A model generated the notes under the pieces. That model did no database searches. It was given only the letters and a program-made list of their open reading frames with translations, and was not told the DNA's origin. 64,000 nucleotides of DNA, taken from Methylopila jiangsuensis. Its GTDB lineage: Bacteria; Pseudomonadota; Alphaproteobacteria; Rhizobiales; Methylopilaceae. The position numbers and the translations under genes were made by a program. The stretch is taken from NCBI RefSeq assembly GCF_027922305.1, contig NZ_BSFK01000005.1:496001-560000 (forward strand). Reading direction: 5' to 3'. Positions within the stretch are counted from its first letter, which is position 1; each line of letters begins with the position of its first letter. This document shows, in pieces, positions 2,517 to 60,741 of the stretch.

Positions 2517-2610
2517 GTCATGCCCGAGCTTGCCTCGGGCATCCACGACTTGAACGCTCAAGCCGTCGTTCGGCCAAAGCCTTGGATGCCCGCCGAAGGC
2601 GGGCATGACG
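2517..2610. repeat. Dispersed intergenic palindrome, copy 1
   Basis: Begins GTCATGCCCGAG and ends CGGGCATGAC, with two inverted-repeat hairpins (GCCCGAG...CTCGGGC and GCCCGCC...GGCGGGC) joined by about 40 bases. It lies between btuF and the upstream gene. The same architecture recurs near 19.3/20.45, 43.1, 46.2, 58.3 and 60.7 kb. Bases 2537-2547 read on the minus strand contain CGTGGATGCCC, the motif into which the IS110-family element at 19.4 kb inserted. Confidence 0.85.
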
Positions 2611-17914: not shown

Positions 17915-19204
17915 TTGGATCGCATCCGCATCATCGGCGGCTCGCCGCTCGTCGGCCGCATCCCGATCTCGGGCGCGAAGAACGCCGCCCTGCCGCTGAT
18001 GATCGCGAGCCTGCTGACCAGCGAAACGCTGATCCTCGACAACACGCCGCGGCTCGCGGACGTGGCGCTGCTGAAGCGCATCCTCGGCAACCACGGCGTC
18101 GAGGTCACGGTCGAGGGCAAGCGCGCCGGCCAGGATGAGTTCCTGGGCGAGACGGTGCGCCTCACCGCGGCCGACATCGTCGACACCACCGCGCCCTATG
18201 ATCTGGTCTCCCGCATGCGGGCGAGCTTCTGGGTCATCGGCCCGCTGCTGGCGCGCGTGGGCGAGTGCAAGGTGTCGCTGCCGGGCGGCTGCGCCATCGG
18301 CACAAGGCCGGTGGACTTCTTCCTCACCGGGCTTCAGGCGCTCGGCGTCGAACTGGAGATCGACAGCGGCTATGTGATCGCCAGGGCCCCCGGCGGACTG
18401 AAGGGCGGTCGCGTCGTGTTCCCCAAGGTCTCCGTCGGCGCCACCCACACCATCCTGATGGCCGCCACGCTCGCCCGCGGCGAGACCGTGATCGAGAACG
18501 CCGCCCGCGAGCCGGAGGTGGTCGATCTGGCCGAGTGCCTGATCAAGATGGGCGCCAAGATCGAGGGCGCCGGCACGTCCACCATCACCGTCACCGGCGT
18601 GGAGCGGCTGCACGGCGCCCGCCACAGCGTGCTGCCGGACCGCATCGAGACCGGCACCTACGCCATCGCCGTGGCCATGGCCGGCGGCGACGTGACGCTG
18701 GACGGCGCGCGCTACGACCTGCTGGACAGCGCCTTCGACGTGCTCTTGGAGGCGGGCGCCGAGATCACCCGCCTGAACGACGGCGTGCGCGTGGTCCGCA
18801 ACGGCCACGGCATCGGCCCGGTCCGCGTCACCACCGAGCCCTATCCGGGCTTCCCCACCGACCTGCAGGCCCAGCTCATGGCGCTGACGACCCGCGCCAA
18901 GGGCTCGTCCAGCATCACCGAGACCATCTTCGAGAACCGCTTCATGCATGTGCAGGAGCTGGCCCGGCTCGGCGCGCGCATCCACCTCGACGGCGACACC
19001 GCCACCATCGAGGGCGTGGAGCGCCTGAAGGGCGCGCCGGTGATGGCCACTGACCTGCGCGCCTCGGTGTCGCTGGTGATCGCGGGGCTGGTGGCGGACG
19101 GCGAGACCACCGTCAACCGCGTCTACCACCTCGACCGCGGCTTCGAGCGGCTGGAGGACAAGCTCTCCCGCTGCGGCGCTGAGATCGAGCGCGTCTCGGG
19201 CTGA
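17915..19204 (+). CDS. murA: UDP-N-acetylglucosamine 1-carboxyvinyltransferase
   Basis: 429-aa cytoplasmic enzyme that transfers enolpyruvate from PEP to UDP-GlcNAc, the first committed step of peptidoglycan synthesis and the fosfomycin target. The N-terminal [10 protein letters not shown] motif and the catalytic loop [13 protein letters not shown] with the reactive Cys are present, as is the C-terminal [13 protein letters not shown]. The start is TTG at 17915, chosen because a strong ribosome binding site (GAAGGAGG, 17902-17909) sits 6 bp upstream. An intrinsic terminator follows directly. Confidence 0.97.
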
Positions 19205-19230
19205 GGCCGGAACAGAGCGCCTCGAACGCG

Positions 19231-19264
19231 AAAAGGCTCCGACCACAGGTTCGGAGCCTTTTTG
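19231..19264 (+). terminator. Intrinsic terminator of murA
   Basis: The arms AAAAGGCTCCGA and TCGGAGCCTTTT pair perfectly around an 8-nt loop and are followed by a T-run. It starts 27 bp after the murA stop. Confidence 0.93.
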
Positions 19265-19296
19265 TCGCCGCCGGAAATTGAAACCCAAGCCTCGCC

Positions 19297-19372
19297 GTCA
19301 TGCCCGGCAAACGCCGGGCATCCACGATTTTCCCGACACGCCTGAAAGCGCAGTGCGTCCGAAGTCGTGGAT
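19297..19372. repeat. Dispersed palindrome copy 2, left part, split by IS110-family element
   Basis: Begins GTCATGCCCGGC...GCCGGGCATCCACGATTTT and runs to GAAGTCGTGGAT, where the similarity to the other copies stops abruptly. The rest resumes at 20448. Joining 19372 to 20451 restores GTCGTGGATGCCCGAG, which matches the intact copy at 60.7 kb. Confidence 0.85.
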
Positions 19373-19385
19373 TGCATGTTTGCGT

Positions 19386-19560
19386 TGTCCGTCCCTGGTG
19401 TTGGGATGGGGGACGCCGGCGGGACCTCGAGACGTGGATGGGTCTTGTCGACCGTGGGCATCTTGAGCCCGCCGGCGTCACGGTCGCGATCACGCGCACG
19501 GAAGTGGGGGCTCTCGCCCGAATGCAATCCGGCGTGACGGACCAGACCGTCATCGTGCCG
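19386..19560 (+). ncRNA. Predicted IS110 bridge RNA with target and donor loops
   Basis: A 5' hairpin (GTCCC/GGGAT, 19391-19407) is followed by two guide-bearing stem-loops. Target loop: a perfect 12-bp stem (19412-19423 with 19468-19479) encloses CGTGGATG (19433-19440), identical to the left side of the insertion site, and GGGCATC (19456-19462), the complement of the right side GATGCCC. Donor loop: TCACGC/GCGTGA (19490-19495 with 19532-19537), extended by GGTC/GACC, encloses CACGGAAG (19497-19504), identical to the right element end 20441-20448, and ATGCAATC (19522-19529), the complement of the left end 19370-19377. Guide order and strand sense agree with the published IS621 bridge RNA. The RNA limits are approximate. 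Confidence 0.85.
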
Positions 19561-19569
19561 GAGGCGATC

Positions 19570-20434
19570 ATGACCCACAAGCTCATCCTTGGGTTCGACG
19601 TGTCGAAGGACTGGATCGACGTCGGCCGCCACGGCGCGGCGGCGGTGACGCGGCTTGCGAACGAGGCGGACGCGATCGCCGCTTTCCTGAAGGCCGAGGG
19701 TCCGATCGGGCTCGCGGCGTTCGAGCCCACCGGCGGCTACGAGCGGGCCCTGCGCCGGGCGCTGGTGGAGGCCGGGGTTCCGTTCGCGCGCGTCCATCCG
19801 AACGAGGTGGCGGCGTTCCGGGCCCGGCGCGGCGTGAAGGCCAAGACCGACCGGATCGACGCCCGGCTGATCGCCGACTTCGCCGCGCTCGAGCTCGACG
19901 GACGCGGGCTGAAGCCGCTGGTCGAGGGCGACGGGGTCTTGCGCGAACTCGTCGCCCGCCGCCGCCAGCTGGTCGACGCGCTCCACGCCGAACGCTGCCG
20001 GGCGGCGCTGGCCGAGAGCCGCCCGGTGCGCGACAGCCTCGAGCGCCGCCATGGCGCGCCGTCTCGCCAGCCTCAAGGGCGTCGGCCCCGTCACGATCAT
20101 GACGCTGATCGGCGCGCTGCCGGAGCTCGGCCGCCTCACCGGCAAGGAGATCGCGAGCCTGGTCGGGCTCGCGCCCGTGACCCGCGACAGCGGCAGGACC
20201 CGGGGCCGGGCCGCCACCGGCCACGGCCGCCCGGACGTGCGCCGCGTGCTGTTCAACGCCGCACGCTGCGCCATCCGCCACAATCTCACGATGAAGGCGT
20301 TCTACGACCGCCTCGTCACACAGAACCGCAGGCCCGGAAAGGTCGCCCTCACCGCCGTCATGCGCAAAATGCTCGTCACCCTCAACGCCATCGCGCGAGA
20401 CCGACAAAACTGGAAACACGCACCTCACGCTTGA
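19570..20434 (+). pseudogene. IS110-family DEDD recombinase, disrupted by internal deletion and frame change
   Basis: The first frame (ATG 19570 to about 20040) encodes the RuvC-like DEDD domain: GFDVSKDWIDV, AFEPTGGYE, KTDRIDARLIADF. The second frame (from about 20045 to the stop at 20434) encodes the Tnp20 domain: LASLKGVGPVTIMTLIGALP, VGLAPVTRDSGRTRG with the expected serine, and HNLTMKAFYDRLV. Homology jumps from DSLE directly to MARRLAS with a +1 frame difference. The coiled linker normally between the domains is mostly missing, by inference roughly 20-35 residues. The first frame continues without an early stop but loses all family similarity. The protein is therefore probably inactive unless frameshifting or a sequencing error is involved. 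Confidence 0.8.
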
Positions 20435-20447
20435 CCGCAAACACGGA

Positions 20448-20474
20448 AGATGCCCGAGACAAGCTCGGGCATGA
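20448..20474. repeat. Dispersed palindrome copy 2, right part
   Basis: GATGCCCGAGACAAGCTCGG followed by GCATGAC, a perfect hairpin around ACAAG. It completes the repeat interrupted at 19372 by the IS110-family element and lies just past the map stop codon at 20488. Confidence 0.85.
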
Positions 20475-20487
20475 CGTGTCGGCGGCG

Positions 20488-21315
20488 TCAGGCCGGCGCG
20501 AACACCGGGGCGTCGAGGCCTTTGGGCGAGAGCGTGAAGATTTCGCAGCCGTCCTCGGTGACGCCGATCATGTGCTCGAACTGGGCGGAGAGCGAGCGGT
20601 CGCGGGTCACGGCGGTCCAGCCGTCGGACAGCACCTTCACCGGCGGGCGGCCGAGATTGATCATGGGCTCCACCGTGAAGAACATGCCGGCCTTCAGCGG
20701 AACGCCCTTTCCGGGCTCCCCGTAATGCAGGATGTTCGGCTCGTCGTGGAACAGGCGGCCGATGCCGTGGCCGCAGAAGTCCCGCACCACCGACATGCGC
20801 TCGCCCTCGGCGAAGGTCTGGATGGCGTGGCCGATGTCGCCGGTGGTGGCGCCGGGCCTGATGACGGCGAGGCCGCGCATCATCGACTCATACGTCACCT
20901 CGATCAGCCGTTCGGCCCGGCGCGGAATCGGGCCGACCGCGTACATGCGGCTGGAATCGCCGTGCCAGCCGTCCAGCACGAAGGTGACGTCGATGTTGAG
21001 GATGTCGCCCTCGCGCAGCGGCTTGTCGTTCGGGATGCCGTGACAGACCACATGGTTGAGCGACGTGCAGATCGTCTTGGGATAGCCGCGGTAGTAGAGG
21101 CATGCGGGAAGGGCGCCGTGGTCCATGGCGAACTCCAGCGCGAGCTTGTCCAGCGCCTCGGTGGTGACGCCCGGCGCCACATGCTCGTTCATCAGGTCGA
21201 GCGCCTCCGCCACCAGCCGGCCGGCGCGCCGCATGCCCTCGAAGGCCTCGGGGTCGTGGATTTTGATGGCGCCGTTTTTCCGCAGCGGCGCCGTAGCGGC
21301 TTCGACGAAGGTCAT
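20488..21315 (-). CDS. map: Type I methionine aminopeptidase
   Basis: 275-aa cytoplasmic enzyme that removes the initiator methionine from nascent proteins. The five metal ligands of the pita-bread fold are visible: Asp in NIDVTFVLDG, Asp in WHGDSSRMY, His in FCGHGIGR, Glu in FFTVEPMI and Glu in SAQFEHMIG. The substrate-site histidine CHGIPND is also present. Length is normal. It is transcribed toward the IS110-family element. No partner operon gene is visible upstream. Confidence 0.96.
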   Translation of the reverse strand: MTFVEAATAPLRKNGAIKIHDPEAFEGMRRAGRLVAEALDLMNEHVAPGVTTEALDKLALEFAMDHGALPACLYYRGYPKTICTSLNHVVCHGIPNDKPLREGDILNIDVTFVLDGWHGDSSRMYAVGPIPRRAERLIEVTYESMMRGLAVIRPGATTGDIGHAIQTFAEGERMSVVRDFCGHGIGRLFHDEPNILHYGEPGKGVPLKAGMFFTVEPMINLGRPPVKVLSDGWTAVTRDRSLSAQFEHMIGVTEDGCEIFTLSPKGLDAPVFAPA

Positions 21316-21429
21316 TTACGTCTCGATGAGCGATGGAGCGCGCAAGATAGCGATCCGTCTCCCCTGCGCCAAGAGGCGCGGCGCGGCCGTGATGGAAGCG
21401 ACGCGGAAAGCCGCTAAAATCCGAGAGCC

Positions 21430-22182
21430 ATGACGCCCGCCCAGCCCATCCGCTCCGCCATGTCCCTTCTGTCCGACGCGCTGCTCTCGAAGCGGCTCGG
21501 ACGGCGGCACTTCATCCTGTTCCGCGACCATCCCATCGCCTACGCCCGGATTCCCAAGGTCGCCAACACCTCCGTCAAGACCGCGCTGACCCGGCTGCTG
21601 CCGAACGGCGACGCGCTGCGCAAGGGCGCTTCCCCGGACCGGCTCTGGGACGTGGGCACGGGCGGGCGCACGCGCATGATCCGCGCCCGCGACGCGGCGA
21701 GGCTCGAGAACGTGTTCGTGTTCTCCTTCGTGCGCGACCCGTTCGAGCGCGCCGCGTCCTACTACGCCACCAAAGTGGCGGGGAGGGGCGAACTGCCTCG
21801 CCTCGCCGCCCGCGACGGATTGCGCAAGAACATGCCCTTCGCCGCGTTCCTGGAGCGGGTGGCGGCGATGGACGACCGGGACATGGACGATCACCTGACC
21901 CCGCAATCGGTGATCCTGCGCCATGGCGAGCGGCTGGTTCCGCGCTTCATCGGGCGGCAGGAGGCGATGGCGGAGCACTGGGAGGCGCTGCGCCGCGAAC
22001 TGGCGGCCTTCGGCGCCCCAGACCTCGGCCCGCTGCCCCACCGCAACCGCAGGGCGCCGGAGGAGGGCCACGCTCTGGCGCGCTACTTCGCCGATCCCGG
22101 CCTCGTGCGCCTGCTGCGGGAGCGCTACGCCGACGATCTCGCGCTGTTCTACCCCGACGCCGATCCGCTGCGGCCGCGCTGA
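21430..22182 (+). CDS. Sulfotransferase-like protein (sulfotransferase family 2)
   Basis: 250-aa protein with the two PAPS-binding signatures of carbohydrate sulfotransferases: a 5'-phosphosulfate loop IPKVANTSVKTAL near residues 39-51 and a 3'-phosphate motif VFSFVRDPFERAASYY near residue 100. There is no clear signal peptide, so it is probably cytoplasmic or membrane-associated. The acceptor is unknown; cell-surface glycans are a common target in the family. It stands alone, divergent from map, and adjacent to a mobile-DNA scar. Confidence 0.82.
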   Translation: MTPAQPIRSAMSLLSDALLSKRLGRRHFILFRDHPIAYARIPKVANTSVKTALTRLLPNGDALRKGASPDRLWDVGTGGRTRMIRARDAARLENVFVFSFVRDPFERAASYYATKVAGRGELPRLAARDGLRKNMPFAAFLERVAAMDDRDMDDHLTPQSVILRHGERLVPRFIGRQEAMAEHWEALRRELAAFGAPDLGPLPHRNRRAPEEGHALARYFADPGLVRLLRERYADDLALFYPDADPLRPR

Positions 22183-22674: not shown

Positions 22675-23449
<775 letters not shown>

Positions 23450-60646: not shown

Positions 60647-60741
60647 GTCATGCCCGGCGAAGCCGGGTATCCACGACGTTCCGCGTCCGAACGCCTGCGC
60701 AGGTTCAGGTCGTGGATGCCCGAGGCAGGCTCGGGCATGAC
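60647..60741. repeat. Dispersed intergenic palindrome, copy 6
   Basis: The best-preserved copy: GTCATGCCCGGCGAAGCCGG...TATCCACGAC at the left and GTCGTGGATGCCCGAGGCAG...CTCGGGCATGAC at the right. It lies between nadA and nadB. Bases 60711-60721 (CGTGGATGCCC) equal the reconstructed insertion site of the IS110-family element. Confidence 0.85.

What the first reader, a model, noticed from the sequence alone, without database searches (positions are those of the whole stretch)
19373..19569. A complete bridge RNA, with all four guides legible, in an IS110-family element
Seen: the 197-bp non-coding left end folds into two stem-loops, each carrying two guide-like segments. Target loop (12-bp perfect stem 19412-19423/19468-19479): CGTGGATG at 19433 equals the left target, and GGGCATC at 19456 is the complement of the right target GATGCCC. 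Donor loop: CACGGAAG at 19497 equals the right element end at 20441, and ATGCAATC at 19522 is the complement of the left end at 19370. Guide order and sense match the IS621 model. Four independent 7-8 nt matches in the right order are very unlikely by chance. This appears to be a programmable recombination system readable directly from sequence in a Hyphomicrobiales IS.
Basis: partly seen in the sequence, partly recalled or inferred. Interest (0 to 1): 0.85.

Follow-up and report, generated by a model that had tools for sequence, protein, structure and literature searches.

The report
Bridge RNA of a decayed IS110 element
A jumping gene in this bacterium carries a guide RNA that spells out both its own ends and the repeated palindrome it inserts into; relatives support the reading, but the kind is already known and this copy's recombinase gene is broken.

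Summary
In detail: all four guides sit at the stated places (one coordinate off by one) in the 5' non-coding end of an IS110-group element, 19373-20451, inserted in a REP-like palindrome. Jointly, left and right target guides fit their own flanks better than any other assignment (1 of 120; five elements), though single guides do not always prefer their own flank. The 5' hairpin and target stem covary; a held-out relative fits the model at 119.7 bits. The predicted 11-nt target occurs 70 times in the genome, the reversed control once. Qualifications: this copy's recombinase is broken by an 80-bp deletion, and the only other substantial copy found is frameshifted: a relic, or trans-dependent. 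The four matches share core bases. Bridge RNAs are known (Durrant 2024): a new member of a known kind. In passing: Rfam sX15 (RF02234), listed as a Xanthomonadaceae sRNA, lies antisense to IS110 ends in 6 of 6 phylum-search matches with flank (4 distinct elements). Whether antisense RNA is made is open.

The parts
19297..19326 (.). Intact REP-like palindrome left of the element (its minus strand at 19316-19326 holds the predicted target CGTGGATGCCC), first half of an inverted REP pair
19366..19372 (+). Left target half CGTGGAT, including the core (AT, ambiguous with GAT)
19373..19540 (+). Bridge RNA (model R1 match 150.2 bits; R1 was built including it); true 5' and 3' ends not determined
19388..19411 (+). 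5' hairpin of the bridge RNA
   Evidence: 4 of 5 pairs with changes on both sides in 7 sequences (fitted alignment); 2 of 5 in the unfitted 6-sequence alignment
19412..19479 (+). Target-binding loop with stem; inner hairpin 19441-19453
19433..19440 (+). Left target guide CGTGGATG
19456..19462 (+). Right target guide GGGCATC (complement of GATGCCC)
19493..19536 (+). Donor-binding loop with stem; terminal hairpin 19508-19519
   Evidence: stem nearly invariant
19497..19504 (+). Left donor guide CACGGAAG
19522..19529 (+). Right donor guide ATGCAATC (complement of GATTGCAT, 19370-19377)
19377..19384 (+). Left arm TGTTTGCG of an 8-bp sub-terminal inverted repeat (other arm 20436-20443)
19570..20043 (+). 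IS110 recombinase, N-terminal part (PF01548); an 80-bp deletion with frameshift lies near 20043
20051..20434 (+). IS110 recombinase, C-terminal part in another frame (PF02371)
20431..20436 (+). TTGACC, candidate -35 box of a promoter formed only at the joined ends of the circle (17 nt from CATGTT of the left end)
   Evidence: same spacing in 5 of 5 elements; inference, the second hexamer has only 3 of 6 consensus bases
20442..20449 (+). Right element end / left donor CACGGAAG
20450..20476 (+). Core AT plus right target half: rest of the interrupted REP (ATGCCCGAGACAAGCTCGGGCATGACG)

Best explanation
19373-20451 is a copy of a small IS110-group insertion sequence. Its left end encodes a bridge RNA on the + strand: 5' hairpin, a target loop whose two guides read CGTGGAT/GATGCCC, and a donor loop whose two guides read CACGGAAG/GATTGCAT. 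In the founding element the recombinase and this RNA bring the circularised IS (donor) to REP-like palindromes carrying CGTGGATGCCC and exchange strands at the shared core. Shown here: anatomy, guide matches, guide-flank covariation between homologues, covariation of 5' hairpin and target stem, abundance of the target in the genome. Inferred: transcription (probably from a promoter assembled across the joined ends), binding to the recombinase, strand exchange. The copy in the window no longer has an intact recombinase, so it is a relic, or movable only in trans.
For: Two IS110 Pfam domains; the intact relative P0001 matches two sequences with solved structure, IS621 and ISCro4 transposase, both E 1.2e-21. 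Homologues: G012 (same genus, pieces of 80% and 87% DNA identity) has RTG GGGTATC with right flank GATACCC, against GGGCATC/GATGCCC here; G205 has LTG GTACTGG with left flank GTACTGG at 8 of 8 insertion sites compared, same guides in all 8, and LDG CACGGTAG with right end CACGGTAG; L051 and L052 follow at both ends, L091 at its left end, the only one it has. Permutations reaching the observed sum: LTG 6 of 720 (six elements), RTG 2 of 120, LDG 4 of 120, LTG+RTG 1 of 120 (five elements, L091 lacks a right end). Structure: 95.1% of cells paired, 10 pairs with changes on both sides, 0 of 500 shuffles as high for either (alignment fitted to the model); on the unfitted 6-sequence alignment 4 such pairs, 119 of 500 shuffles as high, covariation score 6 of 500. 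Held-out Caenispirillum sequence 119.7 bits. + strand favoured: alifold -44.2 vs -39.1, GU cells 26 vs 9. Target 11-mer 70 times in genome, reversed control 1. TTGAC-17-CATGNT across joined ends in 5 of 5 elements.
Against: Single guides do not always prefer their own flank: L091's left guide fits its own flank 6 of 8 but three other flanks 7 of 8; L052's fits its own 5 of 8, tied with others; right guides of G205 and L051 tie with other flanks. G205 RTG (GATTCCC) is exact at 1 of 8 sites, one mismatch at 6, two at 1. RDG permutation is uninformative (120 of 720), and ungapped L052 RDG matches only 4 of 8. Donor stem hardly varies (7 of 8 pairs constant). The complement of the RNA also folds well. 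Only six distinct RNAs. The candidate junction promoter would fail the scan's threshold (TTGACC 5 of 6, CATGTT 3 of 6); no promoter found at 19250-19750. No expression data. Recombinase broken.
Confidence: 0.94

Rival explanations
1. The hairpins are only a DNA or mRNA-leader feature (attenuator, end recognition) and the guide matches are coincidence or end symmetry.
For: High GC favours hairpins; matches share core bases; the complement folds as well as the RNA.
Against: Target guides track flanks that lie outside the element; joint permutation 1 of 120; 3 of 127,920 junctions fit both target guides.
Confidence: 0.03
2. The functional or main RNA is transcribed from the opposite strand, as the Rfam family sX15 is written, for example an antisense RNA over the bridge RNA.
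For: The only Rfam match in 18500-21500 is sX15 on the minus strand (32.6 bits, E 0.0065, below its cut-off 55). sX15 itself lies opposite to IS110 genes. In the sX15-like set the opposite strand folds slightly better (-29.0 vs -23.1). ISPpu9 has an antisense sRNA over its transposase leader (PMC8450116, abstract and outline seen).
Against: In the window's own group G-U pairs and energy favour the + strand; the IS621 RNA starts at a promoter upstream of the recombinase gene (PMC11208160, passages); the candidate circle-junction promoter faces the + strand in 5 of 5 elements; one weaker sX15 match (35.8 bits, L098 1569-1718) lies on the recombinase strand, so the model does not discriminate strands perfectly.
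Confidence: 0.04
3. The bridge RNA of this copy has been kept for a host role, or works in trans with a foreign recombinase, although its own recombinase is dead.
For: The RNA is undamaged while the gene is broken.
Against: No other IS110 recombinase found in the assembly (18 contigs, a gap inside the second copy); the RNA may simply not have decayed yet.
Confidence: 0.05

Closest known systems
IS621 bridge RNA / recombinase (IS110 group), Durrant et al. 2024, PMC11208160 (sections 6, 7, 12 read; passages)
   Same: DEDD plus PF02371 recombinase, bridge RNA in the left end, 5' hairpin plus two loops, guide order and sense, promoter across RE-LE (candidate here), REP target
   Different: Other target and core (AT rather than CT; the IS621 core CT is recalled); right donor guide pairs without a bulge here (a one-base insertion is seen in G205 and L052); sub-terminal inverted repeat 8 bp here and 4-6 bp in relatives against 2-3 bp reported for the IS110 group; recombinase broken in this copy
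ISEc21 seekRNA (IS110 type), Nat Commun 2024, PMC11187229
   Same: Upstream non-coding region gives a guide RNA matching both strands of the target (passages incl. abstract)
   Different: Different target; not compared in sequence here
ISRm19, ISPpu9, ISPpu10, ISPa11 (IS110 family in REPs; Tobes and Pareja 2006, PMC1525189)
   Same: Insertion into REP elements (passages read)
   Different: Relationship to this element not tested
Rfam RF02234 sX15
   Same: Its model matches the complement of this bridge RNA and of other IS110 left ends
   Different: Listed as an sRNA on the opposite strand; window match is below the family cut-off

Membership tests
IS110 family, IS110 group | RuvC-like DEDD domain (PF01548) and C-terminal PF02371 domain | tested here: met
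   broken into two frames in the window copy, both domains in one frame in G012 (P0001)
IS110 family, IS110 group | Long left end holding the bridge RNA, upstream of the recombinase | tested here: met
IS110 family, IS110 group | No or only 2-3 bp sub-terminal inverted repeats (IS1111 has 7-17 bp) | tested here: inconclusive
   best inverted match at the same place (5 bases from left, 7 from right end) in 4 of 5 elements, lengths 8, 4, 5, 6; shuffles as high 20, 1486, 307, 141 of 2000; fifth element's best match lies elsewhere (5 bp, 477 of 2000)
Bridge RNA (IS621 type) | Target guides complementary to LT (bottom) and RT (top), covarying with flanks | tested here: met
   LTG 6 of 720, RTG 2 of 120, joint 1 of 120; some single guides tie or fit another flank better
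Bridge RNA (IS621 type) | Donor guides complementary to both element ends, covarying | tested here: inconclusive
   complementarity met; covariation LDG 4 of 120, RDG 120 of 720; one compensatory change in L091
Bridge RNA (IS621 type) | 5' stem-loop and two internal-loop hairpins supported by covariation | tested here: met
   for the 5' hairpin and target stem; donor stem nearly invariant, so uninformative
Bridge RNA (IS621 type) | RNA expressed and bound by recombinase; recombination depends on it | not testable with these tools
   no reads or assays
IS1111 group | Bridge RNA in the right end, sTIR 7-17 bp | tested here: not met
   RNA is in the left end; an 8-bp sTIR is present in this copy
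Rfam sX15 (RF02234) | Score above gathering cut-off of 55 bits | tested here: not met
   32.6 bits on the opposite strand

The most novel reading that the evidence does not exclude
Some IS110 elements make a stable antisense RNA covering the bridge RNA itself; sX15 of Xanthomonas would be that RNA, detected before bridge RNAs were known, and it would act as a brake on (or chaperone of) RNA-guided recombination. The weaker form, that RF02234 describes the complement of IS110 bridge RNAs, is well supported here.
Probability: 0.2. Interest if true: 0.65.

Novelty: new member of a known kind. Interest (0 to 1): 0.36.

Why it matters
It adds a small, compact lineage in which natural reprogramming is visible: related recombinases (55-61% identical between the G012 protein and those of G205, L051, L052) whose target guides and REP targets changed together. 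This gives a test set for retargeting rules and a small intact recombinase (G012) for DNA insertion tools. The sX15 link means an existing Rfam family can be re-read as an IS110 marker, and raises the testable question whether antisense RNAs control bridge RNAs.

Tried and rejected
Searches that gave nothing or little: plasmids by protein, no match at E 1e-40; viral contigs, 0 of 80 candidate stretches; RNA model R1 in 385 genomes of the class, 1 of 385, the own genome; R1 in 397 genomes of the order, 3 of 397; sX15 family in the own genome, 0 of 1 at E 0.001; promoter scan at 19250-19750, 0 found. R1 in 70 of the loci then held (loci L001-L003, L005-L010, L013, L015-L045 not given): of the 45 genome-contig loci, all given, only L051, L052 (both in the model) and L091 matched strongly; L060, L070, L072, L014, L090 and others scored under 28 bits and were not tested for guides.

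Rows left out: the second own copy (C13 and C5 contig ends) was left out of the permutation because most of its RNA falls in an assembly gap; its left target guide is just visible and repeats the window's. Two short remnants in the own genome (C13:122662-122788, C5:1137854-1137938) were not examined. L091 has no right end and is only in the LTG and RDG tests. G001 has three left ends at contig ends with flank GATGGAT; the contigs stop before the guides and R1 finds nothing in G001, so it was not counted. G205 entered the permutation as one row. L102 was left out of the sX15 left-flank test because its left boundary was unclear. In one search the loop regions and left boundaries of the sX15-like set were picked by eye, which can favour the match; wobble asymmetry did not settle the strand for that set.

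Considered and rejected: IS1111 membership (RNA in the other end); chance hairpins; programmable activity of this copy as it stands.

Full report
OBSERVATION. The four guide words and the 12-bp stem are at the stated coordinates; the right end word starts at 20442 instead of 20441. The flank supplies CGTGGAT on the left and GATGCCC on the right; joined they give CGTGGATGCCC, which is exactly what the two target guides spell. Of 127,920 junctions in the window, 3 fit both target guides fully, and all three lie in REP-like palindromes. The guides overlap at the core, so they are not four independent events.

THE ELEMENT. The DNA between the ends, 1079 bp core to core, encodes an IS110-type recombinase (PF01548 and PF02371). 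It is broken: aligned with the C13 copy and with the intact relative in G012, the window copy lacks 80 bp and changes frame near 20043. The genome holds one more substantial copy, apparently split over two contig ends (C13 right part, C5 left part; that the two parts are one copy is inferred), with the assembly gap inside the bridge RNA; its recombinase has an 8-bp duplication and a 1-bp loss. Two short remnants were also hit. PF01548 finds only the two copies in the genome (2 places). So no intact recombinase for this RNA was found in the assembly.

TARGET. The insertion is in the second palindrome of an inverted pair of REP-like palindromes. The 11-mer occurs 70 times in the genome (31 forward, 39 reverse) against 1 for the pattern read backwards; 30 of the 70 form 15 inverted pairs 42-46 bases apart, counted from the list. 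That IS110-family elements enter REPs is known (PMC1525189, passages; PMC11208160, passages).

HOMOLOGUES. DNA search of 61 genomes (own plus 60 relatives) gave some match in 21 of 61, nearly all short; apart from the own genome only G012 holds a nearly whole copy. Protein search of 397 genomes of the order at E 1e-60 gave 3 of 397: own, G012, and G205 with 5 matches; the RNA model found further G205 copies (7 rows, the number scored), and 8 were compared. A scan of genome contigs gave 45 loci, of which three have strong bridge RNA matches: L051 (Rhizobiales MAG), L052 (Devosia nanyangense MAG), both used in the model, and L091 (Caenispirillum bisanense), held out (119.7 bits).

GUIDES AND FLANKS. 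Left target guide and flank: CGTGGAT with CGTGGAT here and in G012; GTACTGG with GTACTGG at 8 of 8 G205 sites; GCGTGGA with GCGTGGA in L051; TTGGGT with CTGGGT in L052; CGTGGAT with CGCGGAT in L091. Right target guide (complement) and flank: GATGCCC with GATGCCC; GATACCC with GATACCC in G012; GATTCCC in G205, exact at 1 of 8 sites, one mismatch at 6, two at 1; GATGACC with GATGGCC in L051; GATGGCC with GATGGCC in L052. Left donor guide: ACGGAAG, ACGGTAG, ACGGGAG follow the right ends. Right donor guide: nearly constant except L091, where both guide and left end change (ACAATCC with GGATTGTATG); G205 and L052 have one extra base in it, so ungapped counts are 6 and 4 of 8. Permutations: LTG 6 of 720, RTG 2 of 120, LDG 4 of 120, RDG 120 of 720, LTG plus RTG 1 of 120. 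Against: L091's left guide fits three other flanks better (7 against 6 of 8), L052's ties, and two right guides tie.

STRUCTURE AND STRAND. RNAalifold on six sequences gives a 5' hairpin, target stem with inner hairpin, and donor stem with terminal hairpin, the IS621 architecture (PMC11208160, section read). On the unfitted alignment the support is moderate (4 two-sided pairs, 119 of 500 shuffles as high; covariation score 6 of 500). With L091 added in an alignment fitted to the model it is strong (10 two-sided pairs, 0 of 500), all in the 5' hairpin and target stem. The donor stem cannot be judged. The plus strand is favoured by energy and by G-U cells (26 against 9, each strand with its own predicted structure).

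EXPRESSION (inferred). The joined right and left ends place TTGAC 17 bases before CATGNT in 5 of 5 elements, as expected for a promoter that exists only in the circle (PMC11208160, passages). It is weak by consensus (5 and 3 of 6 bases here) and would not pass the threshold of the promoter scan, which found none at 19250-19750. One search adds a short sub-terminal inverted repeat at the same place in 4 of 5 elements (8, 4, 5, 6 bp); only the 8-bp repeat of the window copy is unlikely in shuffles (20 of 2000), yet the shared position with different letters suggests a real feature.

THE sX15 LEAD. The only Rfam match in 18500-21500 was sX15 (RF02234) on the minus strand over the bridge RNA (32.6 bits, cut-off 55). 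In 398 genomes of the phylum sX15 matched 13 places in 5 genomes, one genome over the cut-off. Six of the 13, four distinct elements (three are copies in G449), have sequence on the relevant side: in 6 of 6 a G-I/L-D-V-x-K motif typical of IS110 starts follows 30-47 bases after the match on the strand opposite to sX15; Pfam PF01548 confirms 5 of 6 (L102, cut by the contig end, has no Pfam hit). The other seven (G744) end with the contig. In a second scan sX15 also lay opposite to the IS110 gene in L052 and L060, below cut-off, but one weaker match in L098 (35.8 bits, 1569-1718) was on the recombinase strand, and six of the thirteen loci given (L011, L047, L051, L091, L072, L070) had no sX15 match at E 0.1. 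On the Xanthomonas plasmid pXCV183 sX15 scores 150.9 bits and its complement is followed 26 bases on by ATG and an IS110-like start, MNGIGIDVCKAK, read by eye; the gene there is not intact, and no IS110 gene is annotated. Left guides of five distinct sX15-like RNAs fit their own left flanks (34 of 40; 1 of 120 permutations; regions chosen by eye). So sX15's complement behaves as a bridge RNA. The original sX15 publication is not held; that its strand was measured is recalled, not checked. Searches for the word sX15 in the held library (23 papers, 20 listed) showed one relevant paper, PMC6337395, which only lists the name (passage). The main text of PMC11208160 has no 'Rfam' or 'sX15', that of PMC11187229 no 'Rfam', 'sRNA' or 'antisense'. 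This does not show that the link is unpublished.

VERDICT. A correct and well-read bridge RNA, in a decayed IS110-group element: a new member of a known kind.

Noticed in passing
window 19401-19553 minus; L096, L098, L100-L102, L104, L106: Rfam sX15 (RF02234) matches the complement of IS110 left ends; in 6 of 6 phylum-search matches with flank an IS110-like gene start lies on the opposite strand. Possible strand or identity error in the family, or a real antisense RNA.
   Followed up: partly
G000 contigs C13 (end) and C5 (start): The second copy of the element is apparently split by an assembly gap that falls inside the bridge RNA; C13 and C5 may be neighbours.
   Followed up: partly
L120, L121, L122 (G001, same genus): Three left ends of a related element at contig ends, all with left flank GATGGAT, a different REP type; predicts a left target guide GATGGAT, beyond the contig ends.
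   Followed up: partly
window 19377-19384 and 20436-20443: Sub-terminal inverted repeat TGTTTGCG; three of four relatives have 4-6 bp at the same place with other letters, between the 2-3 bp of IS110 and 7-17 bp of IS1111.
   Followed up: partly
window 2537-2547, 19316-19326, 60711-60721 and 67 further genome sites: CGTGGATGCCC, 70 sites in the genome, 30 of them in 15 inverted pairs 42-46 bases apart; the three window sites lie in REP-like palindromes.
   Followed up: partly
window 22714-23292 minus: Open frame that reads like a piece of an IS3-type transposase (motif recalled, not searched; frame).
   Followed up: no
L101 9-111: Rfam TwoAYGGAY match over its cut-off (47.3 bits, cut-off 43) near an sX15-like IS110 element.
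   Followed up: no
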